This document shows positions 874 to 23,806 of a stretch of DNA of 25,270 nucleotides, in pieces; position 1 is the stretch's first letter; each line of letters begins with the position of its first letter. The notes beneath the pieces are model-generated. The model was not told where the DNA came from. It made no database searches and saw nothing but the letters and a program-made list of their open reading frames with translations. This DNA is from a virus: the IMG/VR virus record IMGVR_UViG_3300049479_000361, positions 1-25,270 of that record. One strand, given 5' to 3'. Position numbers and translations under genes: made by a program.

Positions 874-1010
874 AACTCTGCCCCAACGGAAACCAGGCCG
901 ACGAAAACGGGGAATGTGACAAAGAAGAATGCCAGTCATGTTGCCCTCACGACGAAATGGACCACGGCATTTGTTCTGGGTGCGGATACGATAGGATGAA
1001 ACATTGGTGA
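870..1010 (+). CDS. Tiny Cys-rich zinc-finger-like protein, 46 aa
   Basis: This short gene starts with GTG at 870, whose TG is shared with the previous stop (GTGA overlap), 3 nt after a GAGGGG binding site. It ends TGA at 1008-1010, itself overlapping the next gene's GTG at 1007. The translation begins MKLCPNGNQADENGEC, continues EECQSCCPHDEMDHGICSGC, and ends YDRMKHW. Eight Cys and three His in 46 residues, with a closing CSGC pair, argue for a zinc-stabilised fold. The perfect chaining of its start and stop with both neighbours is the best evidence that it is a real gene. Function unknown. Confidence 0.6.
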   Translation: MKLCPNGNQADENGECDKEECQSCCPHDEMDHGICSGCGYDRMKHW

Positions 1011-1402
1011 TTTTTCTTTTCATAGCCGCAATCCTTGCTGGATGCGGAGCGGAGACCAGAGAGGCACAACTGGTGCGGATGGTGAGCCAGTTCCAGTTGG
1101 AAGCCTCAAGCCGGGGATGGAACGTTGCCGCGTGTCCCACCCCAACCTTTACCAACCAAGACGCACAGCATTCGTGGTGCAATGAACCCCATCGAATTTC
1201 AATCCCGGACAGTACCCCACAGGAAAGCCTTGAGTTTGTTGTCTTTCATGCGTTAGGACATTGTTGGTTGGGGTTACCAGATTCGCCTGTCGGGTTGATG
1301 TCAGAAAACGGCGACGGTTATTTGACCGACAGGCGGGGATTTCTGGACAGTCTTTTTCAAGACGCACAAATTAATGGGTGTGTGACCAGGGTAGAAAAAT
1401 GA
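1007..1402 (+). CDS. Lipoprotein resembling a metalloprotease, catalytic Glu replaced by Ala
   Basis: The start is taken as GTG 1007 (GTGA overlap with the previous gene); a TTG two codons... one codon further upstream at 1004 is possible. Residues 1-13 form a short lipoprotein signal with lipobox LAGC, so the mature protein should be anchored through Cys13 in the envelope. Residues around 79-90 read VFHALGHCWLGL. In small phage and bacterial lipoproteins of putative zinc-metallopeptidase type the matching segment is HELGH, followed by an 'IM' turn and a 'NR--Y-DELF' tail; here the later parts are also present as GLMSENGDG and TDRRGFLDSLF. The Glu of HExxH is Ala (GCG at 1250-1252), so hydrolysis is doubtful although both zinc-ligand His remain. 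It could be a binding pseudo-enzyme. Family assignment is by motif only. Confidence 0.65.
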   Translation: MIFLFIAAILAGCGAETREAQLVRMVSQFQLEASSRGWNVAACPTPTFTNQDAQHSWCNEPHRISIPDSTPQESLEFVVFHALGHCWLGLPDSPVGLMSENGDGYLTDRRGFLDSLFQDAQINGCVTRVEK

Positions 1403-10750: not shown

Positions 10751-11170
10751 ATGAAATCAGGAAAAATCGCATTACTCATTGCATTGTTTTCTTTAAATTT
10801 GTTCGCGGTGCCGACCAACATTTCGGTTGTCACCACAGGACAAGCGGCTGCCGCGTTTGCCGATGTCACAGGCGATACCGTTAACGGAAACCAAATCCGA
10901 AATAACAATGGAGATTTGGTGCTGTTATTGAGAAATTCTCACGGTACGGATTCTGTGACGGTCACTATCGATGCACCTTCAACGTCCTACAGTATCCCCG
11001 GATATGGGACATTGACCCGCTCAGATATTTCGGTATCGTTGGCGGCTGGGGAGATGAAACACGTTGGAGTTCTGAATTCCACGTGGAACGACGCAAATGG
11101 TTATGTTCAGTTGACCTACACAGGAACAGGGACACCGAAGGTAACCGCGATTCGTTCGCCAAAACCGTAA
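10751..11170 (+). CDS. Small beta protein with signal peptide, 139 aa
   Basis: ATG 10751 has an excellent AAGGGGGAAC site. Residues 1-20 (MKSGKIALLIALFSLNLFAV) look like a Sec signal peptide with cleavage after an A-V-P region. The rest is beta-rich: ADVTGDTVNGNQIRNNNGDL, then LVLLLRNSHGTDSVTVTIDA, then VSLAAGEMKHVGVLNSTWN and YVQLTYTGTGTPKVTAIRSP. This 'NG-L-L-L-N---SVTVTIDA---AG-' pattern resembles small head or tail decoration proteins of phages. A signal peptide is unexpected for a virion part built in the cytoplasm. It sits inside the tail operon between tube and chaperone, one base from the next gene. Confidence 0.55.
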   Translation: MKSGKIALLIALFSLNLFAVPTNISVVTTGQAAAAFADVTGDTVNGNQIRNNNGDLVLLLRNSHGTDSVTVTIDAPSTSYSIPGYGTLTRSDISVSLAAGEMKHVGVLNSTWNDANGYVQLTYTGTGTPKVTAIRSPKP

Positions 11171-11171
11171 A

Positions 11172-11528
11172 ATGAACGCTGTAATCGGTGAAAAAACGTT
11201 AGTGCTGGGGGGCAAGTCTTATGTCTTGCGCCCCAGCTTTAAAGCTATGTGTCAGATTGAATCCCACACCGGGAAATCAATCCTCACTCTCATCAAGGAA
11301 TTCGGAGCGGGAAAACCGTTCATGTCTGACATGGTGGCGGTCGCCTATTTCTGCCACGCGGCATCCGATTATGAGCCGGGTAGTCTTCCGACCATAGACC
11401 GTTTCGGTGAACTCATGATGAAAGAGGGTATGTTCACCGTCGGGCCCCAGGTCTTGGAGTGTCTCGTTTCCGCGCTTAACCAAAGCGGCGATGACGCTAA
11501 AAAAAAGACTGCGATACAGAATCAGTAG
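11172..11528 (+). CDS. Tail assembly chaperone, short form
   Basis: ATG 11172 starts a 118-residue protein: MNAVIGEKTLVLGGKSYVLR, PSFKAMCQIESHTGKSILTL, and a helical C-terminal part with VGPQVLECLVSALNQSGDD. It resembles the gene transfer agent gp10-like chaperone family ('L-P---A---IE-TG-S---L'). The protein coats the tape measure before tube polymerisation. Its place between tube and tape measure is diagnostic, as lambda gpG. The last codons run over an A-rich slippery site, after which a -1 shift gives the long form; the 0-frame stop is TAG 11526-11528. Confidence 0.83.
   Translation: MNAVIGEKTLVLGGKSYVLRPSFKAMCQIESHTGKSILTLIKEFGAGKPFMSDMVAVAYFCHAASDYEPGSLPTIDRFGELMMKEGMFTVGPQVLECLVSALNQSGDDAKKKTAIQNQ
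11501..11507 (+). promoter_or_regulatory. -1 ribosomal frameshift slippery site A-AAA-AAG
   Basis: In the chaperone frame the bases read GCT AAA AAA AAG, so the heptamer at 11501-11507 is A AAA AAG, a canonical -1 site in bacteria. Eight A and a G run from 11499 to 11507. A possible downstream stem pairs GCGAT 11511-11515 with ATCGC 11532-11536. The -1 frame beyond is open for 69 codons with a protein sequence typical of the long chaperone's T domain. Confidence 0.85.
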
Positions 11529-11716
11529 TCGATCGCATTCAGTGGGATTCCTTTTACCGAACAGCGGTAACCATTTTTAAAATCAGTCCACGCGATTTTT
11601 GGAACATGACCCCGATTGAATTCTGGTGGCTCTATCCAAAGAAAGAAGAACCACCGGGCGCGATGTCGAAAGATTGGTTAAAATGGGCTATGAATAGATA
11701 CCCAGACAAAAGGTGA
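11507..11716 (+). CDS. Tail assembly chaperone, frameshift extension (T domain)
   Basis: Reading in the -1 frame from 11507 gives 69 residues and TGA at 11714-11716. They include VVDRIQWDSFYRTAVTIFKI, then SPRDFWNMTPIEFWWLYPKK and a short basic tail ending NRYPDKR. The 'W---YR-A---L-LSP-DFW-MTP-EFW' pattern is the usual second tail chaperone domain. In the long protein (about 181 residues, 11172-11507 joined to 11507-11716) it recruits tube subunits to the chaperone-coated tape measure. There is no good independent start: the only ATG early enough, 11606, would cut the domain in half. The extension ends just before the tape measure start at 11720. Confidence 0.85.
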   Translation, partial: DCDTESVVDRIQWDSFYRTAVTIFKISPRDFWNMTPIEFWWLYPKKEEPPGAMSKDWLKWAMNRYPDKR

Positions 11717-11719
11717 TAA

Positions 11720-13696
11720 ATGGCCACAGGACAACAAACACTTGAACAAGTCATTTTAGTCCTGGATGCGAAAATCGACGGCTTCCAGGCCGCGATGAAA
11801 GAAGCAAGCAAGGCCCAAAAAGAAGCCGCCGACAAAATGGGAGACTCTGCAAAGGGTATGACTTCCTCAATTGAGGGGGCCGCCCAAAGTTTCCTGGAAT
11901 TCAAAAACAAGGTTCTACTCGCTGCCGGAATTGGCGGGATTGGCGCTTTCATCAAATCCTCGTTTGAGGCTGCCGACGAAATTGGCGCGTTGTCCCAAAG
12001 GATTGGTGTCTCGACTAAGTTTCTCCAAGAGATGCAATTTGCCGCATCTCAGTTGAACGTTGACCAGCAAATCCTGAACCAATCCCTTCAGATTTTTACG
12101 AGGACACTCGGTCAGGCGACCGTTGGCGAAGAAGCGTCAATGAAAGCCTTCAAGCAATTGGGGATTTCAATTACTGATGCTTCTGGCAACGCGAAATCTG
12201 CCGAACAAGTTTTCGGTGAGGTGTCCGATAAATTCCGAGACATTGAAAGTCAGGCCGTCAGGGCGGCAATAGCCAACGATTTATTCGGTCGCTCGGGCGG
12301 GCAAATGACTCTGATTTTGGCCCAGGGGTCAGCGGAGTTGGCGAAGTTTGCTCAAAAGGCAAACGATCTAGGGCTCGTAATTGAAGACCGTCTCATTCAG
12401 TCAGCCGACGAAACGAACGACAAACTAGCCACCCTAGGGAAAGTAATCCAGTCCCAATTGGCATCGGCGGTTTTGGAGTTGGCCCCGGCTATTCAAGGAA
12501 TGGTTGACGGTTTCATCAGCGCAGCCGTCGTGACGCGAGACCTGTCACAGGAAGTTGGTGCATTCATAAGAAGCGTTTCGGGCAGCGAGACCGCTACCGA
12601 CAAGCTTCAAATCCTTCAGGAAAAATTGGGCAATCTGCAAAAATGGCAGGCCCCGGTCTGGCAAATTCAAGAAACCGAAAAGGCCATTGACGCCTTAATC
12701 AAAAAAGAATTTGCGCTGGATGAGGCCAAACAAAGGAAGATAGCGACCTCTCAAGCTGAATACGAAATCGCGAAAAAGAACGACGAACTTCAAAAGCAAG
12801 CCGAAGAAATAATCAAGCGCACTCAAGGTTCCGACAAAGAAGAAAAACTGAACGCTGAAATTGACCTATTAAAAAAGGCGCGGGAACAGGGGCTGATAAT
12901 CGAGACCGATTACCAAGCAGCGGTTCAACAGCTAGAAGCCGATCGCGAGGCGATGCAGGTCGAACAGACCGAACGGGAAATTGATTCACTGATTGCGAAA
13001 ATTGAAGCCATGAGGGCCTTAAACGATGAAGCCTATCAGGCCGAAATCGATGCCAACATGAACAAAGTGAATCAGTTGATGGGTCAGGAAAATGCGTTTT
13101 CTGAGCATTATCTTAAGACCAAGAACCGCCTAAAACAGATTGATGAGAAATCGAAGCAGGAAGAAAAAAAACGCGATGACCAAATGGTGAGGGACAGGAC
13201 AGATTCCCTCAACTGGATTTCGAATCTCCAACATTCGAAATCGAAAGAAATGGCAGCCGTGGGAAAGGCTGCCGCTATCGCCAACACCACCATCACAACC
13301 TACGAGGCCGCAATGAAGGCATATTCTTCATTGGCAGGAATCCCAATCATTGGGCCAGCCTTGGGCGCCGCTGCCGCTGCCGCCGCCGTCTCCGTTGGGT
13401 TAAGCCGCGTTGCATCCATTGCCGGAACCGATATCGGATTTAAAACTGGTGCCGATATGATTCCTGGGCTTGGGCTCGGAGATTCTGTTCCCGCGATGAT
13501 TCAACCCGGAGAACGCATCGTTCGAACTGACACGAACAGGGTGCTTGAGCAATTTCTGAGGGATTATCGGGATAATTCCGGTGGTGGCGTTGGTGGTGAG
13601 GTCCGACTTGAAATTGTCATGAACGATAATTTGATGGATTTCATCGAGACACAATTGGTCGCTCGGGGAAGAGTGAACGTGAGCATCAACCAATAG
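11720..13696 (+). CDS. Tail tape measure protein
   Basis: ATG 11720 follows AAGGTGATAA. The 658-residue protein has a helical N-terminal part (LEQVILVLDAKIDGFQAAMK), a hydrophobic stretch near 70-85 (VLLAAGIGGIGAFIKSSFEA), ADEIGALSQRIGVSTKFLQE, and long coiled coil from about 290 to 500. A second hydrophobic Gly/Ala-rich segment around 540-570 (IPIIGPALGAAAAAAAVSVG) may insert in the host membrane on ejection. Near the C-terminus GADMIPGLGLGDSVPAMIQP, GERIV is the familiar 'tape measure end' motif (ML-PGE). By the usual 0.15 nm per residue rule the tail would be near 100 nm. No peptidase or lytic domain is seen. Confidence 0.88.
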   Translation: MATGQQTLEQVILVLDAKIDGFQAAMKEASKAQKEAADKMGDSAKGMTSSIEGAAQSFLEFKNKVLLAAGIGGIGAFIKSSFEAADEIGALSQRIGVSTKFLQEMQFAASQLNVDQQILNQSLQIFTRTLGQATVGEEASMKAFKQLGISITDASGNAKSAEQVFGEVSDKFRDIESQAVRAAIANDLFGRSGGQMTLILAQGSAELAKFAQKANDLGLVIEDRLIQSADETNDKLATLGKVIQSQLASAVLELAPAIQGMVDGFISAAVVTRDLSQEVGAFIRSVSGSETATDKLQILQEKLGNLQKWQAPVWQIQETEKAIDALIKKEFALDEAKQRKIATSQAEYEIAKKNDELQKQAEEIIKRTQGSDKEEKLNAEIDLLKKAREQGLIIETDYQAAVQQLEADREAMQVEQTEREIDSLIAKIEAMRALNDEAYQAEIDANMNKVNQLMGQENAFSEHYLKTKNRLKQIDEKSKQEEKKRDDQMVRDRTDSLNWISNLQHSKSKEMAAVGKAAAIANTTITTYEAAMKAYSSLAGIPIIGPALGAAAAAAAVSVGLSRVASIAGTDIGFKTGADMIPGLGLGDSVPAMIQPGERIVRTDTNRVLEQFLRDYRDNSGGGVGGEVRLEIVMNDNLMDFIETQLVARGRVNVSINQ

Positions 13697-13704
13697 GGGA
13701 AGTC

Positions 13705-14514
13705 ATGGGGATAAGATTCTTCGAAAAAAATAAGATAGACCTGACTTTCGACAACGTTGCAATCACTGTGACGGATTTGGTCGCCACAGATTCAGGTCAG
13801 GCATTCGTTAATCTGATGCGGAATCGAAGGAATGATTCTGGTTGGACAACCACCGATTCAACCGACGCCGCCAACACAGAATTAATTTTTGATTTTGGCG
13901 ACCTGGTAGAAATCAACCGTATATTTTTGATTCAACACAATTTAAAAGCCTACACCATTCAATATTGGGACGGGGCTGCATACCAAAACTTTTCAACCCC
14001 AATTTCAGAAACCAACAACTCTGCCGTTGATAAGCTACACGAATTCAACAACGTCGAGACCAGCCGGGTGAAACTTGTCATCACGGGAACCATGGTTGCC
14101 GATGACGATAAATTCATCTCCCAGTTTGTTGCGACCCAAGAAATTGGCCAATTCCAAGTAATGCAGCCACGCATTGAAGATGCGAGGGTTAGCCGAAACA
14201 GAAAGGTTTTAAAATCGCTTTCTGGAAAAGCAAAAATCATGCGCTCAAGCGGGTTCATTGAGTTTAAATTTAGCCAGACCGGCGTCACAAACGATAACGA
14301 TCTGACGCTTTTGGAAACGCTTCACGACTATTACGACGGATTTCTGGTGTGGATTTCTGGCGGAGACGTTTCTCAATTTAGGAACGAAAGAATTGCCTAC
14401 CGTTTGAAAGACCTCATTTTCATGAACATCACGACCGAATATCAGCCCGAATGGAAGAACGGTTTTTATAATCAGGGCATCGACGTGAAATTCAATATGA
14501 CCGAGGTTCTTTGA
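13705..14514 (+). CDS. Tail tip protein with discoidin-like domain
   Basis: ATG 13705 has AGGGGAAGTC upstream. Residues 20-150 have a galactose-binding-like layout: GWTTTDSTDAANTELIFDFG, DLVEINRIFLIQHNLKAYTI, QYWDGAAYQNFSTP and later VKLVITGTMVADDDKFISQF. This is the strand order of F5/8 type C modules, often used for sugar binding. The C-terminal half (LSGKAKIMRSSGFIEFKFSQ onward) is also beta-rich and reminds me of distal tail proteins. It lies directly after the tape measure, where distal tail and hub proteins are encoded. Exact equivalence to a Dit protein is inferred from position. Confidence 0.6.
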   Translation: MGIRFFEKNKIDLTFDNVAITVTDLVATDSGQAFVNLMRNRRNDSGWTTTDSTDAANTELIFDFGDLVEINRIFLIQHNLKAYTIQYWDGAAYQNFSTPISETNNSAVDKLHEFNNVETSRVKLVITGTMVADDDKFISQFVATQEIGQFQVMQPRIEDARVSRNRKVLKSLSGKAKIMRSSGFIEFKFSQTGVTNDNDLTLLETLHDYYDGFLVWISGGDVSQFRNERIAYRLKDLIFMNITTEYQPEWKNGFYNQGIDVKFNMTEVL

Positions 14515-15737
14515 AAACAAGAATCTACATTAAGCCTTTCATTGACGATGAAGGAAGCGCCTATGTTTCTGACTGGATAGAAATCACCGAAGACGTGATG
14601 GGTCTAGATAAACTCCAACAGCAATTAGACAACACTGAATTTGATATCGGAATTTTCAGAGCCGCCAATTGCAAAGTGAAATTGAGGAATGACCACGGTA
14701 GATACGGTGCAGTAAACACCATCGAATCGATTTTCAAATACCGGCGCGGCGGATCGAAAATGAGGGTCACATGGGAACCAGGGGATGACCCAATTTATTG
14801 CAATTTCTTTTTTGCCGGTGACCCTGACGCAATAGTCTCAGAAGAGGTCACGGCATTCGAAGGCATATTGGATGACACTCAAAGCAAAAGTCCAATTGAA
14901 GAACAGACAATTGATTTTCTCATCCAGGGCTATGAGAATTTGCTGGGCCAACTCAAGGTTCCTTTCTCGTCTATCTCAAACGGTGATTCATTTGAGTCGG
15001 TGATTTTCGCAATCGTTAATCAGGCGCCACTAAATTCTTTCGTCACCGTTTCTCTAGCAAATATCTCAGTCGGAATTTCGACAACCATCGACGATAAAAC
15101 TTCGCTGGAAAACAAGACTTGCCTAGAAGCCCTTAAGTCCATTCTTTTGGCTTCGTCATCGGTCCTTTATATTAAGGATAACGTTCTGTTTGTGAAGGCG
15201 AGAACGCCAGGAACCGATGATTCGTATACCTTTTATGGCTGGGCCTCTGAAAATGGCCCGGAAAATATTCTTGATATCGACGATTTCAGGCTTGGAGAAC
15301 AAAGAATTTTAAACTTCGTTACCTGGAAAGATACCAATCTTTTCGCCGAAGACACGACATCAATTCAAAAATATCAGTACCGCAAAAAAGAAGTGGAACT
15401 GGATATCATCACCAACACGACAAAAAGAAATTCTATTCTGACTACAATTAAAGATGAATACCGAGACCCCAAACGGGAATTTATTCTTAAGTGTTTTCTT
15501 GAACAGAAGACCCTAGAATTGTTTTTGTTGGACAAGGTGATTGTTGATTACCCGCCCGAATATGTGACGCGAGACGATGAAAACGTCGCAATTTACGGAA
15601 TCGGGCAATACGGAATTGATTATTATGCGGATGCGATCACGCGTCTTTCGATTGAATCAAGTGCAAGGTTTAAAATCATGAGTCGGAAGGTAGACTTCTT
15701 GGGTGGTTTCATCGAGTTTGGATTGAGGGAAATATGA
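14511..15737 (+). CDS. Probable tail hub / baseplate-like protein, 408 aa
   Basis: The start is TTG 14511, overlapping the previous stop as TTGA; no other start is near. The protein is beta-rich with a central segment CLEALKSILLASSSVLYIKD, then NVLFVKART, and IDFLIQGYENLLGQLKVPF further up. A 'phage tail hub' protein of gp27/Tal type has such an arrangement: two beta domains, and a helical insertion leading to 'L-a-y-r-dg-l-v'. No peptidase, lysozyme or signal peptide is seen. With its neighbour 13705-14514 it probably closes the tube end. The call rests on gene order and size; sequence evidence is weak. Confidence 0.5.
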   Translation: MKTRIYIKPFIDDEGSAYVSDWIEITEDVMGLDKLQQQLDNTEFDIGIFRAANCKVKLRNDHGRYGAVNTIESIFKYRRGGSKMRVTWEPGDDPIYCNFFFAGDPDAIVSEEVTAFEGILDDTQSKSPIEEQTIDFLIQGYENLLGQLKVPFSSISNGDSFESVIFAIVNQAPLNSFVTVSLANISVGISTTIDDKTSLENKTCLEALKSILLASSSVLYIKDNVLFVKARTPGTDDSYTFYGWASENGPENILDIDDFRLGEQRILNFVTWKDTNLFAEDTTSIQKYQYRKKEVELDIITNTTKRNSILTTIKDEYRDPKREFILKCFLEQKTLELFLLDKVIVDYPPEYVTRDDENVAIYGIGQYGIDYYADAITRLSIESSARFKIMSRKVDFLGGFIEFGLREI

Positions 15738-16627
15738 ACAAGAAAACTTTATTTTGGGCTGGTTTCACCGTCGCAATCATCCTGGTTATCCCAAGCGTCG
15801 TTCTGCCAGATACATCGACCTTATTCAGCGTTTCGGGCGGGCGCGTTCTCACATCGCACGTGAATCAATATTTCAACGCGTTGAAGCAAGACCTAGTTCC
15901 GAGAAACTCTGGCGGCGCCCCAACCAATCGGGCGGGAAGTCTCGGCACCTCGGCCTTTCGATGGTTTAAGGCTTTCATCGAAAGCGGTTATTGGGCGGCT
16001 GGTGACGTTAAGCTACACCATACTTTCAATGGCCTTAGGACTTGCGGCCAGGGGTGGATGCTTGCGGATGGACAGCAAGTCACTCAAGCAAATTACGATG
16101 CTCAGGCGGGATATTCTGCCGGTGATTGGGCGACGTATGTGGTTTCGTCTCCGTTGCTCAATAAATTCACCCCGAACATGACCGGTAGATATCCGGTGGG
16201 TTCTGCCACCACGACTCAAGATGGGAGTATCGCGATCACGGCTGTGGGTAACTCTGGAAACACGGTCAATCTTCAACATGGTCATGGAACCCATAGCCAC
16301 ACCGCTCCAGACCATGGCCATGTCTGGCTTTTAGATGGATTGATTGCCGGTACCGACAGCACGTTAAGGTACACCGGAACAAGTTTTGTGACTCAGAATT
16401 TCGCTGTTAAGACGAAGAACGCCGGACCTTTGGGAATTCAATCTTGTTCTGGAAGCGCGACTTGTTTGGGCGGGGCTGCCAGCAATAATTTTTATACCGG
16501 TGGCGCCCTCTACACGGCAGCCGGTTCTTCTACTAGCGCAAATTCGGTACCGAATGCTCTATCAACAACGCAAACGATTCAGCCTGATTCCATTCAGGTT
16601 CAATATTGCATCCGTATCATAGATTGA
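15734..16627 (+). CDS. Tail fibre with collar domain and N-terminal signal/anchor
   Basis: ATG 15734 overlaps the previous stop (ATGA). Residues 4-25 form a hydrophobic segment after two Lys (LFWAGFTVAIILVIPSVVLP), a signal peptide or anchor. Residues 40-85 carry a fibre-linker motif (SHVNQYFNALKQDLVPRNSG, then AGSLGTSAFRWFKAFI). Residues 105-160 match the phage collar domain: GWMLADGQQV, then LNKFTPNMTGRYPVGSA. At 182-196 lies HGHGTHSHTAPDHGH, three HxH pairs, the type that bind iron in T4 fibre tips. The C-terminal end is beta-rich. It should be a trimeric receptor-binding or tip protein; the hydrophobic N-terminus is the odd feature. Confidence 0.75.
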   Translation: MNKKTLFWAGFTVAIILVIPSVVLPDTSTLFSVSGGRVLTSHVNQYFNALKQDLVPRNSGGAPTNRAGSLGTSAFRWFKAFIESGYWAAGDVKLHHTFNGLRTCGQGWMLADGQQVTQANYDAQAGYSAGDWATYVVSSPLLNKFTPNMTGRYPVGSATTTQDGSIAITAVGNSGNTVNLQHGHGTHSHTAPDHGHVWLLDGLIAGTDSTLRYTGTSFVTQNFAVKTKNAGPLGIQSCSGSATCLGGAASNNFYTGGALYTAAGSSTSANSVPNALSTTQTIQPDSIQVQYCIRIID

Positions 16628-16636
16628 GGTTAATCA

Positions 16637-17092
16637 ATGCCAAGCATCGCGACATCTATCCCAATCAGGGTAAACGGCCAAAGAGTTTATGCCGGATGGT
16701 GGAACATCCTCAGGGAATGGTTAATCTATCTTTTTGGCGCCGGGGCAATACCTGAAACTGAGTTCACGTTACCTAATAATCAGGTCAGCGCGCTAGATGT
16801 GACCGGGCTCGTTTTTGACTCAGCATCTTTTCGTGGCTCTGTAATCGAATACGATATCTATCGAAAAACGGATACCGCTTCAAGCGAGGTTAGGGCTATC
16901 GGAGAAATTCGATTGGTGTGGCGTACCGAGACTTCTCTTTGGGAATTATTGGGTCCATCAGAAAGCGGAGACTTTACCGGAGTCACTTTTTCTGTGACTT
17001 CACTTGGCCAGGTTCAGGTGACTACAACAAACATTTCTGGCGCGAATTATATTGGTTCAATGAGATTTAGAGCGAGGACGTTCGATGTTTAA
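16637..17092 (+). CDS. Tail fibre-associated beta-sandwich protein, 151 aa
   Basis: ATG 16637 has GAGG seven bases upstream. The first 35 residues (SIPIRVNGQRVYAGWWNILR) look like an attachment segment. The rest is a beta domain: FTLPNNQVSALDVTGLVFDS, ASFRGSVIEYDIYRKTDTAS, EIRLVWRTETSLWELLG and VTFSVTSLGQVQVTTTNISG. I recognise 'NNQ-A-DVTGL-FD-----IEY-IYRKT' followed by 'VTFS-T--GQV-YT-TN' as a recurrent module of phage fibres. It lacks the signal peptide seen on its two fibre neighbours. The next gene starts 8 bases before its stop. Confidence 0.6.
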   Translation: MPSIATSIPIRVNGQRVYAGWWNILREWLIYLFGAGAIPETEFTLPNNQVSALDVTGLVFDSASFRGSVIEYDIYRKTDTASSEVRAIGEIRLVWRTETSLWELLGPSESGDFTGVTFSVTSLGQVQVTTTNISGANYIGSMRFRARTFDV

Positions 17093-19211
17093 AAAAATTC
17101 TCACGTTTGTTTTATTAATCCCATTAATTGCCGTTGGCGGAAAAACCGAAATAGGTGATTTCCAGGTTAGAAAAACCCCTGGCGCCCAGAACGGTTCGGC
17201 AATTTTTGAGGTGACCACAGACAATAAGGGCAGTCTTCCGGCGCCGCGATTAACTACCGCGCAACGAAACGCTATTACGAGCCCAGCCACTGGACTTCTT
17301 ATTTTCAATACCGATACCGGACAGTTCAACGTTTATAACGGAATAATATGGTCGGCAGTCGGCACCACTGGCGGTTCCAATCTTGGGATTAATTATATCG
17401 AGTCCTCAGACGCTGAAGCGACCATCGCCGGTTGGAATACCTACGCCGATGCGGCGGGGGCCCTACCAGTTGATTGCACTGGTGGTTCGCCGACGGTCAC
17501 ATTTGCTCAAAGCGGAACCTCACCGCTCCGGGGGTTAAATTCGTTCCTATTTACCAAGACCGCCGCAAACACTCAGGGTCAAGGTTTCAGCTATGATTTC
17601 ACGATAGCCTCTGCCGACAAAGCAAAGGTCTTGGGCATTGAATTTGAATATGAGGTCGCCAGCGGAACGTGGCAGGCCGGAAGCTCAAGTCAGGATTCTG
17701 ATTTGCAAGCCTACATTTATGACGTGACCAACGCCCAAGTAATTCAGCCGACGCCCTATAAAATTACCGGTGGCACTGGGAACAATCATAAATTTCAGAC
17801 CGAATTCCAAACGAACTCGAACTCGACTTCGTATCGACTTTGTATTCATAGTGCCACCACCAACGCCTCGGCATTCTCGATGCGGTTCGATACGGTTGTA
17901 GTGGGGCCAAACACCAAGCAGGTCGCGACGGTAATTTCCGATTGGGTTCCGTTCACGGTGACCCATAGCTGGCTAACCGACGTTACCGCCACGGGATATT
18001 ATAGGCAGGTAGGGGATTCAATTCAGGCAAGGTACTTTTTGAGCATGACCGGCAGTCCAACTGGTCCAGATCTCACGATTCAACTTCCGCCTGGCCTTTC
18101 CTTCGATTCGACTAAACTCATGAGTTCGAGTCAGGAATTGGTAGGTGGTGGGATACTGAACGATTCAGGTTCGACGCAATTCAAAATCCAAGCAGCCAAT
18201 CCCTCTGGGAATAGCTTCTCGGTTCTTTTGCCTACAGATATTACTGTCGGGATAGCATACACTTCAGCGGTAACTCCAATTGTCCCGGTTGTTTTGGTCG
18301 CTGGGGATTCGATCGCGATAGATATTTCAGCCCCGATTTCGGGTTGGTCATCGAGTGCGATAAAATCCCAAGACGCCGACACTCGCTCTGTTTTTGCGCT
18401 GGCAGGCGGAACCCCAGCATCTACTACAGCGAACAATCCAATCGTGTATGGAACCAGCTTAATTGATTCTCACACTCGGTATGATACGTCAGCGGGAACC
18501 TATCGATGCCCCTACTCTGGAACCTACCGTGTTAACACCGTTCAGAGGGCTACGAACACTTATACGGTGAGCATCTATCGAAACAATGTGATTGATTCGA
18601 CCGGGATTCTCGCGGCTGTGACAAGCGGATTGGGCTCGGGTAGCAAACTGATTTCTTGTAACGCTAATGACACCTTATTCATTGGTCCATCGGCTACAAC
18701 CGGAGCGTTTAGCGCTGGAAGCACGGTTAGTTTTGAATTGATTTCGAACCCAAGAATTATCTCCGCCTCTGAAGTAGTGGCGGCCAGGTATTCCAGCGCA
18801 AGCGGTCAGGTGATTGCAAACAATACTCTGACCACAATCAATTACAGCACTAGATTTTACGATACTCACGGCGCTGTCACTACCGGGGTTTCTTGGCGAT
18901 TCACTGCACCGATGGCTGGTAGATATAGCGTTTGCGTTCGGGCTACATTAAATGCTTCCGCTGGTTGGGCAGCGAATGAAAGGGCTTATATCCAGTTGGT
19001 GAAAAATGCTGGCGCTTATTCTTTGCTGGCTAACACAAACGGATTAACTGCAAACGAAATCAGGGTTCTTTCTGGGTGTGATGACGTAGAATTGTTGGCT
19101 GGTGAAACGGTGACTCCGCAAATATTCCAGAACAACGGTGCGGCGATAGCGCTTTCAACAAACGTAAATGAAAACAATATTTCCATAAGCAGAATTGGGG
19201 GAGTCGAATGA
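17085..19211 (+). CDS. Large multi-domain fibre with C1q-like domains and signal peptide
   Basis: ATG 17085 overlaps the previous gene by 8 bases, with GAGG upstream. Residues 1-17 (MFKKILTFVLLIPLIAV) form a signal peptide. Residues 45-95 carry a fibre motif: GSLPAPRLTTAQRNAITSPA, TGLLIFNTDTGQFNVYNG. Residues 100-278 look like a carbohydrate-binding jelly roll (AEATIAGWNTYADAAGALPV at its start). Residues 285-420 form another beta domain (GYYRQVGDSIQARYFLSMTG). Two C1q/TNF-like jelly rolls follow, about 432-555 and 562-706, each with a 'G-Y/W-C/F-P-SG-Y-V' core (CPYSGTYRVNTVQRA; FTAPMAGRYSVCVRA). The order suggests a long receptor-binding fibre. It could alternatively be a cell-surface protein displayed on the lysogen. 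Confidence 0.7.
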   Translation: MFKKILTFVLLIPLIAVGGKTEIGDFQVRKTPGAQNGSAIFEVTTDNKGSLPAPRLTTAQRNAITSPATGLLIFNTDTGQFNVYNGIIWSAVGTTGGSNLGINYIESSDAEATIAGWNTYADAAGALPVDCTGGSPTVTFAQSGTSPLRGLNSFLFTKTAANTQGQGFSYDFTIASADKAKVLGIEFEYEVASGTWQAGSSSQDSDLQAYIYDVTNAQVIQPTPYKITGGTGNNHKFQTEFQTNSNSTSYRLCIHSATTNASAFSMRFDTVVVGPNTKQVATVISDWVPFTVTHSWLTDVTATGYYRQVGDSIQARYFLSMTGSPTGPDLTIQLPPGLSFDSTKLMSSSQELVGGGILNDSGSTQFKIQAANPSGNSFSVLLPTDITVGIAYTSAVTPIVPVVLVAGDSIAIDISAPISGWSSSAIKSQDADTRSVFALAGGTPASTTANNPIVYGTSLIDSHTRYDTSAGTYRCPYSGTYRVNTVQRATNTYTVSIYRNNVIDSTGILAAVTSGLGSGSKLISCNANDTLFIGPSATTGAFSAGSTVSFELISNPRIISASEVVAARYSSASGQVIANNTLTTINYSTRFYDTHGAVTTGVSWRFTAPMAGRYSVCVRATLNASAGWAANERAYIQLVKNAGAYSLLANTNGLTANEIRVLSGCDDVELLAGETVTPQIFQNNGAAIALSTNVNENNISISRIGGVE

Positions 19212-19591
19212 ATCGCTATACAATTACAAATCTTCGAAATGGTTTGGTTTTCATGATCGACGCGGAAAGCGAGCCAGAACACCGGGAAGATTTTGGGACT
19301 TTGCCAGCGACAAAAATTTCTTCTGATTGTGATGAGTGGGAACTTCAAAACGGGACGGAAGTTAGCCCGGGGATATATGAAATCCCGCGTTCATATTCCA
19401 TCGAAGTTGAAGACCTATCGCAGCAAATTGAAGAACAACAAAATCAGGAATTGTTGCGACAGCAAAGAATCGATAGACTAAAGAACGTCGATATCAATTC
19501 TTTACCGCAAGACATCAGGCAATTTCTTGATGACGTTAGGCGAATAACACTCGAAACAATCGGAGAACCAGTTGAGGGAGAACAAGGTTAG
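19208..19591 (+). CDS. Hypothetical protein after the fibre, possible fibre assembly factor
   Basis: ATG 19208 overlaps the fibre stop (ATGA). Residues 1-55 are beta-like (MNRYTITNLRNGLVFMIDAE onward) with DEWELQNGTEVSPGIYEIPR, and residues 70-120 form a Gln-rich coiled coil (LSQQIEEQQNQELLRQQRID) with a short acidic tail. A small beta-then-coil protein just after a fibre gene fits a fibre-assembly chaperone in layout, but I see no family signature. It has no signal peptide, unlike the fibre. The next gene begins within its last 20 bases. Confidence 0.5.
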   Translation: MNRYTITNLRNGLVFMIDAESEPEHREDFGTLPATKISSDCDEWELQNGTEVSPGIYEIPRSYSIEVEDLSQQIEEQQNQELLRQQRIDRLKNVDINSLPQDIRQFLDDVRRITLETIGEPVEGEQG

Positions 19592-19823
19592 CTTTGAAAT
19601 GTTGTTCAAGGTTGGCGGTTCAGTTCTTGCTTTATTGCTCGGCGCCAATATTTATTTCGTGAAGCGTCTTGTCGATAGCGTCGATGAAATCCCATCGATG
19701 AAAGAAAAGTTGGTTCAGTTCGAACGCACCATGCCAAATTACACCGAATTGAGGGTTGAGGTGGCTGTGCTAAAATATGAAATCAAGGACCTTCGGGAAG
19801 AAATTAAGAGGATAAAAAAATGA
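19572..19823 (+). CDS. Membrane-anchored coiled-coil protein, probable lysis gene
   Basis: I prefer TTG 19572, with GGAG six bases upstream and 20 bases of overlap with the previous gene; ATG 19599 is the alternative. The 83-residue product has one transmembrane helix near the N-terminus (VGGSVLALLLGANIYFVKRL), then about 50 residues of heptad-like helix ending VLKYEIKDLREEIKRIKK. One membrane helix plus a coiled coil, at the head of the lysis cassette, fits an inner-membrane spanin, an XhlA-like holin partner or a holin regulator. No residues distinguish these. ATGA links it to the next gene. Confidence 0.55.
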   Translation: MRENKVSFEMLFKVGGSVLALLLGANIYFVKRLVDSVDEIPSMKEKLVQFERTMPNYTELRVEVAVLKYEIKDLREEIKRIKK

Positions 19824-20086
19824 GCAAGCAAATGAAAACGGTTGAGTATTCGAAAGAAATCGATGACGTGATGGGACTTTTTGTCGCGATTGTCGATAAC
19901 CGAAAAAAGAAAGAAGAACTCGCGAAACTTTTCGACGAACTTCTAGAAGCCGTGACCGGCATCGGCGAAATCGATGACGAGTTCATGGTTGATCGGAAGG
20001 TGGCACTACAAACCATCGGTTATCGAACCGGTGAATTGGTCGATGCATTCCTGCCCGCAAAAGCGGAAAAGCCTATTGAAGGCTGA
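19820..20086 (+). CDS. Hypothetical cytoplasmic protein in the lysis cassette, 88 aa
   Basis: ATG 19820 overlaps the preceding stop (ATGA). The product is helical and acidic: KTVEYSKEIDDVMGLFVAIV, NRKKKEELAKLFDELLEAV, and VALQTIGYRTGELVDAFLPA. 'EYSKEIDDV---V--IV' followed by 'ALQT-GYRTGEL-DA' is a sequence type I believe recurs in phage lysis regions, without known function. It has no membrane segment. Its stop and the next start overlap as TGATG. Confidence 0.5.
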   Translation: MSKQMKTVEYSKEIDDVMGLFVAIVDNRKKKEELAKLFDELLEAVTGIGEIDDEFMVDRKVALQTIGYRTGELVDAFLPAKAEKPIEG

Positions 20087-20976
20087 TGGAAAACAAGAAG
20101 CCATCGTATCAGTCTAAAACTCTCTGGTTCAATTTGTCGGGGCTCATCGCGTTTCAGGTTATATCGCGGTGGGTCCCTGACTTTTCAAAAGCAATTTGTG
20201 CAAACGAAGAACTGACTCTCACAATCGGAGTAATAATCGTGCAGGCAATTTTTCTGATTAACGCCCTATTGAGATTTGCCACAAAGGATAGGGTATCTTT
20301 CTTGGCGCTTCTTTTGCTGGTCGGTTGTAGTTCAGTTCCGCAAAAGCTAGACACCAATATTTTTTATCGGCGTGACCTTCCTATTTGCGAACAAGATTTT
20401 GGGTGTTTTGAAGGGATGGCCGTACTGCCAAAGAAAGATTTTTACAAATTCCAATTGTCTCCAAAGGGCGGGGCGGAGATTGATTTGTTCGTCGCTACTA
20501 CAGCACACCGCAACGACACGTTTGAGCCAACAAATAGCTCGTGGCTTTTCTGGAAAAAGAAAAATTCATACGAATATAAGTTCTCGCCAAATCCATCGAT
20601 TGAAGGTGACGGAGATTCGAATTTGGTTTTCCAAACATTCGAAAAGAAAAAGGGAAGGCATAGTTGGGCAATCATCTTGTTCCAGCACCCTAAATACCAA
20701 TTGCCTTATACGCTTTATTGCAATGGATACACGATTCGATTCGATGGGGTCGGTGGATGCCAAAGCAAGACTGGACTGAAGCAGGGAATCAAGTTCGAAG
20801 AACCTGTGGCAATCGAGTCTGACGCCAATTGTCCGGTTCCAAAAAAAGTGAATGATTTCTATGAATGGCCAATTGGTTACAAGGAATGTGGTTATACTTT
20901 CCGTAGTAAAAGCGGGAAGCTTGGGACCCTAATGACCGTCGGTTACAAAGGCGAATTAGTCAGAGAAACGGAGTAA
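20086..20976 (+). CDS. Holin-like membrane domain fused to a lipoprotein-like domain
   Basis: ATG 20086 overlaps the previous stop (TGATG). Residues 6-67 resemble two-helix phage holins: PSYQSKTLWFNLSGLIAFQV, and TLTIGVIIVQAIFLINALLR, then FATKD. Such N-termini normally end the protein. Here the frame continues into SFLALLLLVGCSSVP, a textbook lipobox with Cys81, and about 215 more residues. These contain five further Cys and a beta-rich body (EGMAVLPKKDFYKF, WAIILFQHPKYQLPYTLYCN, YKECGYTFRSKSGKLGTLMT). The second part may be an outer-membrane spanin-like or unrelated lipoprotein. An internal TTG at 20302 with a good binding site could make it separately. No homologue recognised for the C-terminal domain. 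Confidence 0.6.
   Translation: MENKKPSYQSKTLWFNLSGLIAFQVISRWVPDFSKAICANEELTLTIGVIIVQAIFLINALLRFATKDRVSFLALLLLVGCSSVPQKLDTNIFYRRDLPICEQDFGCFEGMAVLPKKDFYKFQLSPKGGAEIDLFVATTAHRNDTFEPTNSSWLFWKKKNSYEYKFSPNPSIEGDGDSNLVFQTFEKKKGRHSWAIILFQHPKYQLPYTLYCNGYTIRFDGVGGCQSKTGLKQGIKFEEPVAIESDANCPVPKKVNDFYEWPIGYKECGYTFRSKSGKLGTLMTVGYKGELVRETE
20284..20304 (+). promoter_or_regulatory. Candidate internal ribosome binding site and TTG start
   Basis: AAGGATAGGG at 20284-20293 stands 8 bases before an in-frame TTG at 20302. Starting there gives MALLLLVGCSS, a compact lipoprotein signal, and a 224-residue lipoprotein ending at 20976. The same bases encode the holin-to-lipoprotein junction of the longer frame, so holin and lipoprotein could be made from nested frames. 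Confidence 0.45.
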
Positions 20977-20978
20977 TC

Positions 20979-21191
20979 ATGACCGGAATTATCGCGGCAA
21001 TCATTCCAATTGCTCTAGAACTCATTGGATATTTTTTAAAAAAGAATTCAGATAACGAAAAAATGGCTGAGGCTTTTTTTCAATGGGTCGAAAAAATTCA
21101 AGATGAATACCTGATGTCGGCCAATATGCGGGACAGGGCAAAAGAACGGATGAAGAAAATCACCGAAAAACCTTTTGTTGAATCGCCGTGA
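20979..21191 (+). CDS. Small membrane protein before the endolysin, 70 aa
   Basis: ATG 20979 lies two bases after the previous stop, with ACGGAG upstream. Residues 3-20 (GIIAAIIPIALELIGYFL) are one transmembrane helix; the remainder is a charged amphipathic helix (EKMAEAFFQWVEKIQDEYLM, then MRDRAKERMKKITEKPF). Beside an endolysin this could be a holin, a holin partner or an inner-membrane spanin whose helix meets the lipoprotein encoded upstream. I cannot choose among them. It overlaps the endolysin start as GTGA. Confidence 0.55.
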   Translation: MTGIIAAIIPIALELIGYFLKKNSDNEKMAEAFFQWVEKIQDEYLMSANMRDRAKERMKKITEKPFVESP

Positions 21192-21622
21192 TAAATGAAC
21201 CAATCTTTCATTATGCTATCTCGCTTGTCGGGAAACCTTATCGTTGGGGCGGATCGAACGCCCTTATTGGATTTGACTGTTCTGGGCTCGTCCTTGAATT
21301 GCTTGCGGCACAAGGGAAATGGAATCATCGGCAAGACGCCAGTTCCCAAGGTATATACGACCATTTCAAAAACTCTTCGAACGGTGAAACAAAGGGGTTT
21401 GGAACTCTTTATTTCTACGGAAAATCGATAAAACAAATCACCCATATTGCGTTCGGTCTCGATGATAAGACAATGATTGAGGCTGGTGGTGGCGATTCAA
21501 CAACGGTCAGCGAGACGGCAGCCAGAGAGCGTGGGGCAGTCGTGAGGCTAAGGCCGTGGAATTATCGAAGGGATTTAGTGGCGTTTCTCAATCCCAATTC
21601 ATTGGTAATCCAAACTCTCTGA
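21188..21622 (+). CDS. NlpC/P60 endolysin
   Basis: GTG 21188 overlaps the previous stop (GTGA). The 144-residue protein carries the NlpC/P60 core: GKPYRWGGSNALIGFDCSGL with catalytic Cys31, then QITHIAFGLDDKTMIEAGGG with His86 and a Glu at about 98 in the third polar position. These enzymes cut peptide bonds in the stem peptides of peptidoglycan. There is no signal peptide, so it depends on the neighbouring membrane proteins to reach the wall. It is the last gene of the rightward lysis cassette and its final 35 bases overlap, tail to tail, the reverse-strand VRR-NUC gene. Confidence 0.88.
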   Translation: MINEPIFHYAISLVGKPYRWGGSNALIGFDCSGLVLELLAAQGKWNHRQDASSQGIYDHFKNSSNGETKGFGTLYFYGKSIKQITHIAFGLDDKTMIEAGGGDSTTVSETAARERGAVVRLRPWNYRRDLVAFLNPNSLVIQTL

Positions 21623-21932
21623 GGGCATGACGCATCTCGGAACGCGACCTGGCCGATGCCCAAAATATTCCTTGGCGCTCGCACTGCCCCTTAAATTCAA
21701 TCTGTTCCTTCGAAAACACTCCACCCTTTGGCTTTTTCAATTCAATGAAGGCACATCTTCCGCGATGAAAGACCACTAAATCAGGCATCCCGGCGTTTGG
21801 GTTTTTGACCATCTTGCCGCGATGCAGCCTGCCACCCATGTAAATTCTTTTCCAGAAAATGATTCCCAACCGTTGTAAAATATCTAGGTCGGCTCGGCAT
21901 TCATCGAAAACTTCGCTTTCTGACTTGTCCAT
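21588..21932 (-). CDS. VRR-NUC domain nuclease, 114 aa
   Basis: The reverse-strand ATG is at 21930-21932. The core reads NPNAGMPDLVVFHRGRCAFI then ELKKPKGGVFSKEQIEF: Gly48-x2-Asp51, Glu64-x-Lys66 and Gln77, the PD-(D/E)xK active site of VRR-NUC. These stand-alone phage nucleases are thought to act on branched or replication-intermediate DNA, and could have a role in packaging or homing. It is antisense to all surrounding genes: its 3' end overlaps the endolysin and its start faces a fibre cassette across 36 bases. That suggests insertion as a separate unit. Confidence 0.85.
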   Translation of the reverse strand: MDKSESEVFDECRADLDILQRLGIIFWKRIYMGGRLHRGKMVKNPNAGMPDLVVFHRGRCAFIELKKPKGGVFSKEQIEFKGQCERQGIFWASARSRSEMRHALREFGLPMNWD

Positions 21933-21968
21933 TGTTACGATATAAAAAGTTCCATCTTTGGGGGAAAA

Positions 21969-22370
21969 ATGAAAATCAAATTGGCCTTCCTATTCCTGGT
22001 AACCATCCAGGCAATCGCTTTTTGCAGCGTCTACTCAATTCAGCAAACTCCAATGGCAACTCAACAATCGGTGAAAATCGATGCCTCGGTCAACAACATA
22101 CCAGATGCGTTTGACGCCACGGCTGGCAGTCAGGTGATGACGGTTTCATTGAGCGGACAGCAATGCATTTTAGTGAAGAACATCACTTCAACAATGATAA
22201 GTTATGTCAGCGCAGATTCCGTTCCCAGCGCCTCGACGACCGAAAGATTTTATGTTCCTGCGAATACCTACGAGGAACGTTGCTCAACTGCGATTAAATC
22301 AAAAATCTACATTCAATCAGAAGGTGGGTCCGATATCACCTCTGGAACCGTCACGGTGGGCGTATGGTAA
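21969..22370 (+). CDS. Small beta protein with signal peptide, second fibre cassette
   Basis: ATG 21969 has GGGGGAAA upstream. Residues 1-20 (MKIKLAFLFLVTIQAIAFCS) are a signal peptide; the Ala-Phe-Cys end might even be a weak lipobox. The mature part is beta-rich: GSQVMTVSLSGQQCILVKNI, TTERFYVPANTYEERCSTAI, and SKIYIQSEGGSDITSGTVTV. 'C-LVKN' followed by 'VPA-TYEE' resembles small phage decoration or tail accessory proteins, and recalls the signal-bearing beta protein at 10751 in layout. It starts a three-gene block, so it may be the first gene of its own transcript. Confidence 0.55.
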   Translation: MKIKLAFLFLVTIQAIAFCSVYSIQQTPMATQQSVKIDASVNNIPDAFDATAGSQVMTVSLSGQQCILVKNITSTMISYVSADSVPSASTTERFYVPANTYEERCSTAIKSKIYIQSEGGSDITSGTVTVGVW

Positions 22371-23806
22371 ACATTTTTCTTTCTGTATCGTTGCTTTTGT
22401 TCACGATTTGTTTGCAATCTTTTGGTGAGGCCGGGCCAATTGGAGCGCCTGCCGGAACCGAAATTTCATCTAGCGGACAGCCAGCAGGTTCCATCATCGT
22501 GAGCGATGGGGCCGGTGGTTCTACGTATCAAACATTAAGCCCACTGGAATTGGACCAGGTAACAACCCCAGCAAACCCTTCGTCGGGTAGCGTGAAACTT
22601 TATTTCAAGTCCGACGATAAGCTTTACAAACTAACATCGGCGGGGGTTGAGAGCGAGATAGGCGCTGGCGGTGGCGGCGGAATTAGTATCGGCGGCGCGG
22701 TCTCGGGCGGAACTGCCAATTATTCTCTTTTTGTGGATGGCTCTGGGAACCTTGCTCAATCGTCCGATTTCCAGTTCGATAACTCTGCGAAGAAAATGTC
22801 ACTGGGTGGCGGTGCAGGTAGCGTTTCCCTTCAAATGACCAATACCGCTAGTGGTTCATCGAGTACCGATGGAATTATTTTAAGTTTCAACGGCACTGGA
22901 TTGACGGTGAATAATCAGGAAGCGGGCTCTACCAGGCTGCTTTACCAAACAACCGGTGTAGCGGATAGCGGGGCCGAACATATTTCGGTTCACGGTGAAG
23001 GCACTACTCGGTTTCGTTACAACTTTTATCAATCCTCTGGAACTCAAAACGTTGCGGGAACCATGGCTCTTATGCGGTCTCGGGGAACCCTGGCATCCCC
23101 GACAGCGATTCAAACGTTGGACACCTTGGGGACTCTTTCCTTTGGTGGTTATGACGGTTCTGCGTGGGCCCGTCCTGCCAGCATGACGAGCTTTTCGGAA
23201 GCCGGGTGGACCGGAACAGATAGAAGTTCAGCTATTCAATTTGCGACATCACCGGTTGGTGCTTCAGCCGGTCAAGCGGCTTTCCGAATTTTAGGTAATG
23301 GAAATATCCAATTCCGACGTGGGCAGACCATGGGGGTCTACCATGTCGACAACGCGGCGGCTGACGCTTCAAAGGGATACGACATCGAACTTAAGGCGAG
23401 CAATAAAACTGCCGGAACTGGTAACGGTGGCGATGTTTTAATTTCTGGCGGAGCAAGTACTGGCGGAACAAAGGGTGGGATCAAATTTCAGTCTGATGCC
23501 GAGCTCGTTGGTTCTTTCGCTGCCGATGGACTGTTCAGCCTTACTAAAGTCGGCGGCGGTTTGTCGGTGAAAGAAGGATCAAACGCGACGATGGGAACGG
23601 CCACGATGACGGCTGGTTCGGTAACGGTAAACACCACAAAGGTGACGGCATCGAGTAGAATTTTTGCCTATTGTAATGATGCAAACGGCGGGACTCCGGG
23701 GGCTTCTTACGTTTCAGCGAGAAGTGCCGGAACTTCATTCACGTTAAGTTCAACCAGTGTTGTCGATACCTGCGTTATGTCTTGGGTGATCATTGAACCT
23801 AATTGA
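22364..23806 (+). CDS. Second tail fibre with signal peptide, 480 aa
   Basis: ATG 22364 overlaps the previous stop by 7 bases. Residues 1-20 (MVNIFLSVSLLLFTICLQSF) are a signal peptide. A Gly/Ser-rich body follows: SGQPAGSIIVSDGAGGSTYQ, PSSGSVKLYFKSDDKLYKLT, GGTANYSLFVDGSGNLAQSS. A shaft module contains RGTLASPTAIQTLDTLGTLS then FGGYDGSAW. The C-terminal 75 residues (TVNTTKVTASSRIFAYCNDA, then GTSFTLSSTSVVDTCVMSWV, IIEPN) are a recognised fibre-tip module ('TV-TT-VTA-SRIF', 'A-TSFTITS---DTS-V-WLIIEP'). It is probably an alternative or accessory receptor-binding fibre, far from the main fibre genes. Confidence 0.75.
   Translation: MVNIFLSVSLLLFTICLQSFGEAGPIGAPAGTEISSSGQPAGSIIVSDGAGGSTYQTLSPLELDQVTTPANPSSGSVKLYFKSDDKLYKLTSAGVESEIGAGGGGGISIGGAVSGGTANYSLFVDGSGNLAQSSDFQFDNSAKKMSLGGGAGSVSLQMTNTASGSSSTDGIILSFNGTGLTVNNQEAGSTRLLYQTTGVADSGAEHISVHGEGTTRFRYNFYQSSGTQNVAGTMALMRSRGTLASPTAIQTLDTLGTLSFGGYDGSAWARPASMTSFSEAGWTGTDRSSAIQFATSPVGASAGQAAFRILGNGNIQFRRGQTMGVYHVDNAAADASKGYDIELKASNKTAGTGNGGDVLISGGASTGGTKGGIKFQSDAELVGSFAADGLFSLTKVGGGLSVKEGSNATMGTATMTAGSVTVNTTKVTASSRIFAYCNDANGGTPGASYVSARSAGTSFTLSSTSVVDTCVMSWVIIEPN

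What the first reader, a model, noticed from the sequence alone, without database searches (positions are those of the whole stretch)
10751..23806. Five fibre or decoration proteins carry Sec-type signal peptides
The products at 10751, 15734, 17085, 21969 and 22364 all begin with one to three positive residues or a short polar lead and 14-20 hydrophobic residues, while the bodies are fibre or small beta modules. Tail parts are normally assembled in the cytoplasm, where an export signal would remove them. Either these proteins are displayed on the host envelope, or assembly of the tip is membrane-associated, or the signals are not used. The pattern is repeated in two separated cassettes, so it is not a single start-site error.
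Basis: partly seen in the sequence, partly recalled or inferred. Interest (0 to 1): 0.72.

Follow-up and report, generated by a model that had tools for sequence, protein, structure and literature searches.

The report
Phage fibres tagged for host export
A virus of predatory (Bdellovibrio-like) bacteria, and several unrelated viruses of the same bacteria, carry export tags on tail-fibre proteins that viruses of this kind normally build inside the cell, which suggests part of the attachment gear is sent to the host's envelope first.

Summary
Four of the five N-termini pass a strict Sec-signal rule. The fifth (22364) passes a looser one because it lacks a leading Lys/Arg. No core head or tail gene passes. 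Start sites are sound: no usable downstream start exists for 15734 or 17085. SP-less relatives of 10751 and 15734 begin just after the leader, so the signals are additions to ordinary fibre/decoration modules.

A Bdellovibrionota genome holds a prophage syntenic with the window's tail module, with a signal-bearing fibre in the same slot, so the host is almost certainly Bdellovibrionota. Signal-bearing fibres recur in cultured Bdellovibrio phage phi1422 (gp68, gp75), a phi1422-like prophage, a podovirus prophage and podovirus MW202898. The main fibre in each sits directly downstream of a signal-less fibre or adaptor gene. Signal-less fibres occupy the same slot in other phages (2 of 45 IMG/VR homologues have a signal; 3 of 8 in known Bdellovibrionota phages), and a tree scatters the signal.

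Export is likely (~0.85). What follows is unknown: joining the virion at lysis (favoured) or display on the host envelope. The proteins resemble, but are not, Bdellovibrio MAT fibres. I found no prior description in the open-access papers searched. No SignalP run or virion proteomics was possible.

The parts
10751..11170 (+). Small (139 aa) protein between the tail-tube and chaperone genes. Sec signal (1-19) fused to a module (29-135) of PHROG 16194 'tail protein'.
   Evidence: SD AAGGGGG; SP rule; PHROG 16194 E=1.3e-6 at residues 29-135; SP-less homologues in the same slot, L004:11192-11551 and L002:6228-6575
15734..16627 (+). Collar/fibre protein (297 aa) with a 25-residue hydrophobic leader; possibly an uncleaved signal anchor
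   Evidence: SP rule; three SP-less tandem homologues in the G148 prophage begin just after the leader; no alternative start before codon 43
16637..17092 (+). SP-less gene upstream of the exported fibre, probable adaptor or tail-tip protein; its stop overlaps the 17085 start by 8 nt (ATGTTTAA)
   Evidence: Sequence; homologues next to fibres in L205, L206, L203 (SP-less fibre) and G148 (SP fibre)
17085..19211 (+). 708-aa fibre: Sec signal (1-19), surface-protein module (about 30-95), receptor-binding-type body with a C1q domain (446-545)
   Evidence: C1q PF00386 E=4.8e-7; SP rule; body homologous to MW202898 fibre and phi1422 gp68, both with SP
21969..22370 (+). 133-aa protein, predicted mostly beta (low confidence), with Sec signal; two Cys in the mature part
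   Evidence: G-run SD; SP rule; low-confidence beta model with N-terminal helix 5-19; no homologue found
22364..23806 (+). 480-aa fibre: hydrophobic leader without Lys/Arg, stalk like Bdellovibrio MAT fibres (about 207-334), K1-lyase_C tail domain (407-477)
   Evidence: PF24146 E=1.8e-19; PDB 8ol4 E=1.8e-6; Bdellovibrionota surface fibres; loose SP
11720..13696 (+). Tape measure protein; start of the module syntenic with the Bdellovibrionota prophage
   Evidence: 37% over the C-terminus with G148
13705..14514 (+). Distal tail protein without SP, syntenic in the G148 prophage
   Evidence: 38%, E=6e-60
14511..15737 (+). Tail-tip protein without SP, syntenic in the G148 prophage
   Evidence: 37%, E=3e-92
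21188..21622 (+). NlpC/P60 endolysin between the two fibre cassettes
   Evidence: PF00877 E=3.9e-12; 40% to the G148 prophage enzyme

Best explanation
This is a siphophage of a Bdellovibrionota host whose fibres and small decoration-like modules have had genuine Sec signal peptides added, so these proteins are exported during infection instead of being built into tails in the cytoplasm. Shown by sequence: the signals, the sound starts, SP-less homologues that begin just after the leader (10751, 15734), recurrence in several unrelated phages of the same bacterial phylum, and location of the main fibre directly downstream of an SP-less fibre or adaptor gene. Inferred (about 0.85): the signals are used and the proteins reach the periplasm or surface. 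Inferred (about 0.4): these are halves of a two-part fibre. The adaptor stays on the cytoplasmic virion; the receptor-binding half trimerises outside the cytoplasm and meets the virion when the cell lyses.
For: Signals and starts. Added leaders: 10751 against L004/L002 and 15734 against three G148 copies; phi1422 gp75 against a G073 prophage gene whose residue 2 aligns with gp75 residue 19. Recurrence: phi1422 gp68 (MKFMIAFIIALFSVTMATA) shares a fibre domain with 17085, E=8e-8; G148, G073 and G132 prophages; MW202898; L194 and L220. Gene-pair layout: window and MW202898 share the same 8-nt ATGTTTAA overlap; the upstream MW202898 gene starts with a T7-type tail-fibre N-domain; G132 has an overlapping 185-aa gene whose counterpart in G845 shares its N-terminus at 51%; phi1422 gp67 is a tail fibre. 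Host: syntenic G148 prophage with integrase. In the window every large fibre candidate past 14511 carries a signal, so virions would otherwise lack them. SP+ fibres are scattered on the tree: 5 changes, at least 2 forced.
Against: No experiment shows export, cleavage or presence in virions. 22364 lacks n-region charge and 15734 lacks a clean cleavage site. Five Bdellovibrionota phage fibres of the same family have no signal (G141, G780, G852, G795, G845), one of them in the same slot as an SP+ fibre, so export is not required for these phages. The enrichment over IMG/VR is modest (one-sided Fisher 0.02; 0.08 without phi1422). Even cysteine counts in mature SP proteins are only suggestive: MW202898 has 5, and the SP-less homologues are mixed.
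Confidence: 0.5

Rival explanations
1. The exported fibres never join virions. They are displayed on the infected or lysogenic host's envelope, where they mask the phage receptor (superinfection exclusion or avoiding readsorption to debris, working like T5 Llp) or serve the predator as adhesins, like its own MAT fibres.
For: The 17085 N-module directly follows a signal in most cellular homologues. Bdellovibrionota genomes encode SP-bearing surface fibres with the same stalk and C1q-type bodies outside prophages (G820, G107). In lambda the tail region holds lom, an exported outer-membrane protein (PMC12309495). MAT fibres are surface-exposed (PMC10769870).
Against: No lipobox or outer-membrane barrel is evident in the five. 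The lytic phage phi1422 has them too, so lysogenic conversion is not required. Their gene slots are those of virion fibres in relatives. No SP-less large fibre would remain in the window.
Confidence: 0.33
2. The hydrophobic N-termini are not processed; they insert into an adaptor or the tail as adhesive segments and the fibres stay virion parts made in the cytoplasm.
For: 15734 lacks a clear cleavage site and 22364 lacks n-region charge.
Against: The other leaders show classical n/h/c order (e.g. phi1422 gp68 ATA-Q). Leaders differ in sequence, are absent from homologues in the same slot, and precede unrelated domains.
Confidence: 0.12
3. Start-site errors or chance hydrophobic stretches.
For: Shuffled proteins pass the strict rule 1.2% of the time.
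Against: No alternative starts; SD sites; phi1422 gp68 and gp75 were annotated from the same start by their depositors; recurrence at the same slot.
Confidence: 0.03

Closest known systems
Mosaic adhesive trimer (MAT) fibres of Bdellovibrio bacteriovorus (PMC10769870)
   Same: Phage-fibre-like, signal peptide, beta-rich stalk; the 22364 stalk matches PDB 8ol4 and MAT-like proteins
   Different: Phage-encoded; lacks the conserved domain after the signal (LTYQGRI... in MAT-like proteins); ends in K1-lyase_C, not S74; about 480 aa instead of about 1100
Bdellovibrio phage phi1422 gp68 and gp75
   Same: Signal-bearing genes in the fibre region; gp68 directly follows an SP-less tail fibre and shares a domain with 17085
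   Different: Myovirus; annotated only as hypothetical; remainder of the sequence unrelated
Lambda Lom and other exported morons in the tail region (PMC12309495)
   Same: Exported protein encoded among tail genes
   Different: Lom is a membrane beta-barrel; the window proteins are fibre/decoration modules homologous to virion proteins
Signal-less fibres of the same body family (IMG/VR loci, G845, G141)
   Same: Same receptor-binding body, same gene neighbourhood
   Different: N-terminal virion-type module instead of a signal
T5 Llp (receptor-masking lipoprotein; from memory)
   Same: Phage protein exported during infection to block the receptor (function-level analogy only)
   Different: Lipoprotein, not a fibre; no sequence comparison was made here

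Membership tests
Sec/SPase I signal peptide | Positive n-region, hydrophobic core, -3/-1 small residues | tested here: met
   Strictly met for 10751, 15734, 17085, 21969; 22364 lacks n-region charge; the 15734 site is poor. Rule-based, not SignalP.
Sec/SPase I signal peptide | Export and cleavage in vivo | not testable with these tools
   Needs fractionation or N-terminal mass spectrometry
MAT fibres of Bdellovibrio | Signal peptide | tested here: inconclusive
   22364 passes only the loose rule
MAT fibres of Bdellovibrio | Conserved ~130-aa beta domain right after the signal | tested here: not met
   Full-length host homologues begin with LTYQGRI...FEITNP after the signal; 22364 aligns only downstream
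MAT fibres of Bdellovibrio | Beta-rich trimeric stalk homologous to solved MAT structures | tested here: met
   PDB 8ol4 E=1.8e-6 at residues 232-322; that entry is cited in the MAT paper
Tailed-phage fibre of the 17085 body family | Homologous body in other phage tail regions | tested here: met
   47 IMG/VR loci and MW202898
Phage of Bdellovibrionota | Syntenic relative in a genome of that phylum | tested here: met
   G148:C76: tape measure to endolysin collinear, integrase present
Virion component | Protein present in purified virions | not testable with these tools
   No proteomics available

The most novel reading that the evidence does not exclude
Some tailed phages of predatory Bdellovibrionota use split fibres. 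A cytoplasmic adaptor is put on the virion, while the receptor-binding half is secreted through Sec, trimerises in the envelope, and is fitted onto virions only outside the cytoplasm, at or after lysis.
Probability: 0.3. Interest if true: 0.88.

Novelty: new variant of a known kind. Interest (0 to 1): 0.64.

Why it matters
Tailed-phage fibres are taken to be assembled in the cytoplasm. Repeated addition of export signals to fibre genes, probably several times independently in phages of one predatory phylum, implies either a tail-maturation route outside the cytoplasm or a phage strategy of coating the host with its own receptor-binding proteins. It also links phages of Bdellovibrio to the predator's own phage-like, secreted prey-binding fibres, and a cultured phage (phi1422) makes the question testable now.

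Tried and rejected
Start-site error: rejected. Lipoproteins or beta-barrels: no lipobox near any of the five leaders and no barrel-type repeat noticed. Disulphide/cysteine-parity test of periplasmic folding: suggestive only. AlphaFold2 of 10751 and 21969: pLDDT 36 and 47, so no fold search was run. Direct nucleotide relatives in the phage collection: none. Pattern scans with 14511, TerL, 15734, 21969 and 22364 in IMG/VR found no relatives. PF24146 search in Bdellovibrionota gave nothing, but its controls were silent too, so it is uninformative. A clean host-phylum association of the signal was weaker than first seen: a first test gave Fisher 0.002, but further SP-less Bdellovibrionota phage fibres brought it to 0.02. 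One intended Pseudomonadota control turned out to draw on the same genomes as the Bacteroidota control, so a second set was run from another centre. MAT membership of 22364: rejected on the N-terminal domain.

Full report
WHAT IS THERE. The window is a 25,270-base IMG/VR virus record holding a siphophage structural module: large terminase (2246), portal (3838), protease (6159), HK97-type capsid (6837), connectors, tail tube (10328), tape measure (11720), tail tip (13705, 14511), a first fibre cassette (15734-19211), a lysis cassette with an NlpC/P60 enzyme (21188), and a second fibre cassette (21969-23806) (identities by homology or by position). The five products named in the finding have the leaders described. 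A rule-based Sec test passes four strictly and 22364 loosely; no head or tail-tube gene passes. The background is 4.5% of viral genes and 1.2% of shuffled sequences; four of 23 has P of about 0.018 and 1.5e-4 respectively.

STARTS. 10751 and 21969 follow G-rich Shine-Dalgarno-like sites. 15734 and 17085 have no in-frame ATG/GTG/TTG before codon 43, and none of the five has a convincing alternative. The leaders are therefore translated.

SIGNALS ARE ADDITIONS. Gene 10751 lies between the tail tube and the tail chaperone. Its relatives in the same slot of two other siphophages (L004:11192, L002:6228) have no leader, and their N-termini align just after its signal. PHROG 16194 ('tail protein') matches from residue 29. 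Gene 15734 has three tandem SP-less relatives in the G148 prophage that begin just after its leader. In cultured Bdellovibrio phage phi1422, gp75 carries a signal, and its relative in the G073 prophage lacks one and begins at the mature start, E=1e-5.

HOST. G148 belongs to the set of genomes drawn from the phylum of G001, the genome of Bacteriovorax sp. BSW11_IV. Its contig C76 carries a prophage collinear with the window from tape measure to endolysin: 13705 38%, 14511 37%, 16637 33%, NlpC/P60 40%, with an integrase. In the 17085 slot it has an SP-bearing 624-aa fibre that shares the SP-plus-module N-terminus (37% over residues 4-96) but has a different body. This makes Bdellovibrionota the almost certain host phylum.

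RECURRENCE. phi1422 gp68, annotated 'hypothetical' by its depositors, starts MKFMIAFIIALFSVTMATA-Q, follows the SP-less tail fibre gp67, and shares a fibre domain with 17085 (E=8e-8). A phi1422-like prophage in chromosome G073, close to HSP90 and an integrase, has the same pair. Podovirus prophage G132 has an SP-bearing fibre overlapping a 185-aa gene; in the syntenic G845 prophage the corresponding upstream gene shares its N-terminus (51%). Podovirus MW202898 has an SP-bearing fibre 35% identical to 17085 over most of its length. There the start codon overlaps the stop of a gene with a T7-type tail-fibre N-domain in the same 8-nt ATGTTTAA that links 16637 and 17085. The deposited MW202898 start, 33 nt upstream, is probably wrong. 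L194 and L220 add two more.

THE SIGNAL IS OPTIONAL. About 43 of 45 IMG/VR fibres of this body family lack it and start with virion-type modules. In L205, L206 and L203 a 16637 homologue precedes an SP-less fibre. G845, syntenic with G132, has an SP-less fibre in the slot where G132 has an SP-bearing one. Among body-defined fibres in known Bdellovibrionota phages 3 of 8 have a signal, against 2 of 45 in IMG/VR (one-sided Fisher 0.02; 0.08 without phi1422). A tree of the bodies needs five changes for five SP+ rows and starred branches force at least two. Gain by module swapping has thus probably happened repeatedly.

LINK TO HOST SURFACE FIBRES. The 17085 N-terminal module follows a signal in most cellular homologues but rarely in viral ones. 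The 22364 stalk matches PDB 8ol4, an entry cited in the Bdellovibrio MAT fibre paper, and proteins in 16 of 144 Bdellovibrionota genomes, against 1 of 198 and 1 of 200 in two other phyla. Full-length host proteins carry a signal and a LTYQGRI domain that 22364 lacks. It ends in K1-lyase_C. It therefore resembles a MAT and probably shares a module with MATs, but is not one.

MECHANISM. Shown: real leaders, sound starts, addition to virion-type modules, recurrence, adaptor-plus-fibre gene order. Inferred: export. Favoured next step: the receptor-binding half is exported, folds outside the cytoplasm, and meets adaptor-bearing virions at lysis. Reasons: every large fibre candidate past 14511 in the window carries a leader, relatives in the same slot are ordinary virion fibres, and a lytic phage (phi1422; lytic per PMC3391216) has the same arrangement. 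The main rival is envelope display for receptor masking or adhesion. No tool here separates them; proteomics of phi1422 would.

LITERATURE. Searches of the open-access library found the MAT paper and lambda Lom (an exported protein encoded among tail genes), but no description of Sec signals on Bdellovibrio phage fibres. One paper on phage DGR proteins notes that they lack the signal peptides seen on bacterial counterparts (PMC6199706), which underlines how unusual this is. Most subscription journals are not held, so novelty is provisional.

Noticed in passing
L113, L118/L121, L128 (IMG/VR): Phage contigs with Bacteroidota-style signals (...AQ in several) on large tail-region proteins (1032, 827, 1107, 1011 aa) and neighbours; exported fibres may extend beyond Bdellovibrionota phages.
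   Followed up: partly
MW202898.1 35733-38486 (L003:19266): Annotated start is probably 33 nt too early; the signal-bearing ATG lies at L003:19299 after AAGGAG.
   Followed up: yes
window 1004-1402 +: Small putative lipoprotein (TTG start, leader ending LAGC) with an HALGH motif resembling a degenerate metalloprotease signature; no Pfam hit.
   Followed up: partly
window 20086-20976 +: One ORF joins a transmembrane segment to a lipobox (LLLLVGCSS) and a long Cys-containing domain in the lysis cassette; may be overlapping or fused lysis genes.
   Followed up: no
window 21588-21932 -: Opposite-strand gene resembling a VRR-NUC nuclease (by eye) between the endolysin and the second fibre cassette.
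   Followed up: no
L215, L217, L221, L222, L225: Viral contigs with a signal-bearing 331-348 aa protein containing a CxxCH haem-type or similar motif (e.g. GYQTCVTCHA), mostly beside a 160-170 aa exported protein.
   Followed up: no
L247:15998-17930: Three tandem divergent copies of a collar-type fibre gene (relatives of 15734) in the G148 prophage.
   Followed up: no
L279:4689-7869: Fibre gene apparently split in two with another ORF (MHSIYLITNLINQKVYVGVSS, GIY-YIG-like by eye) between the halves.
   Followed up: no
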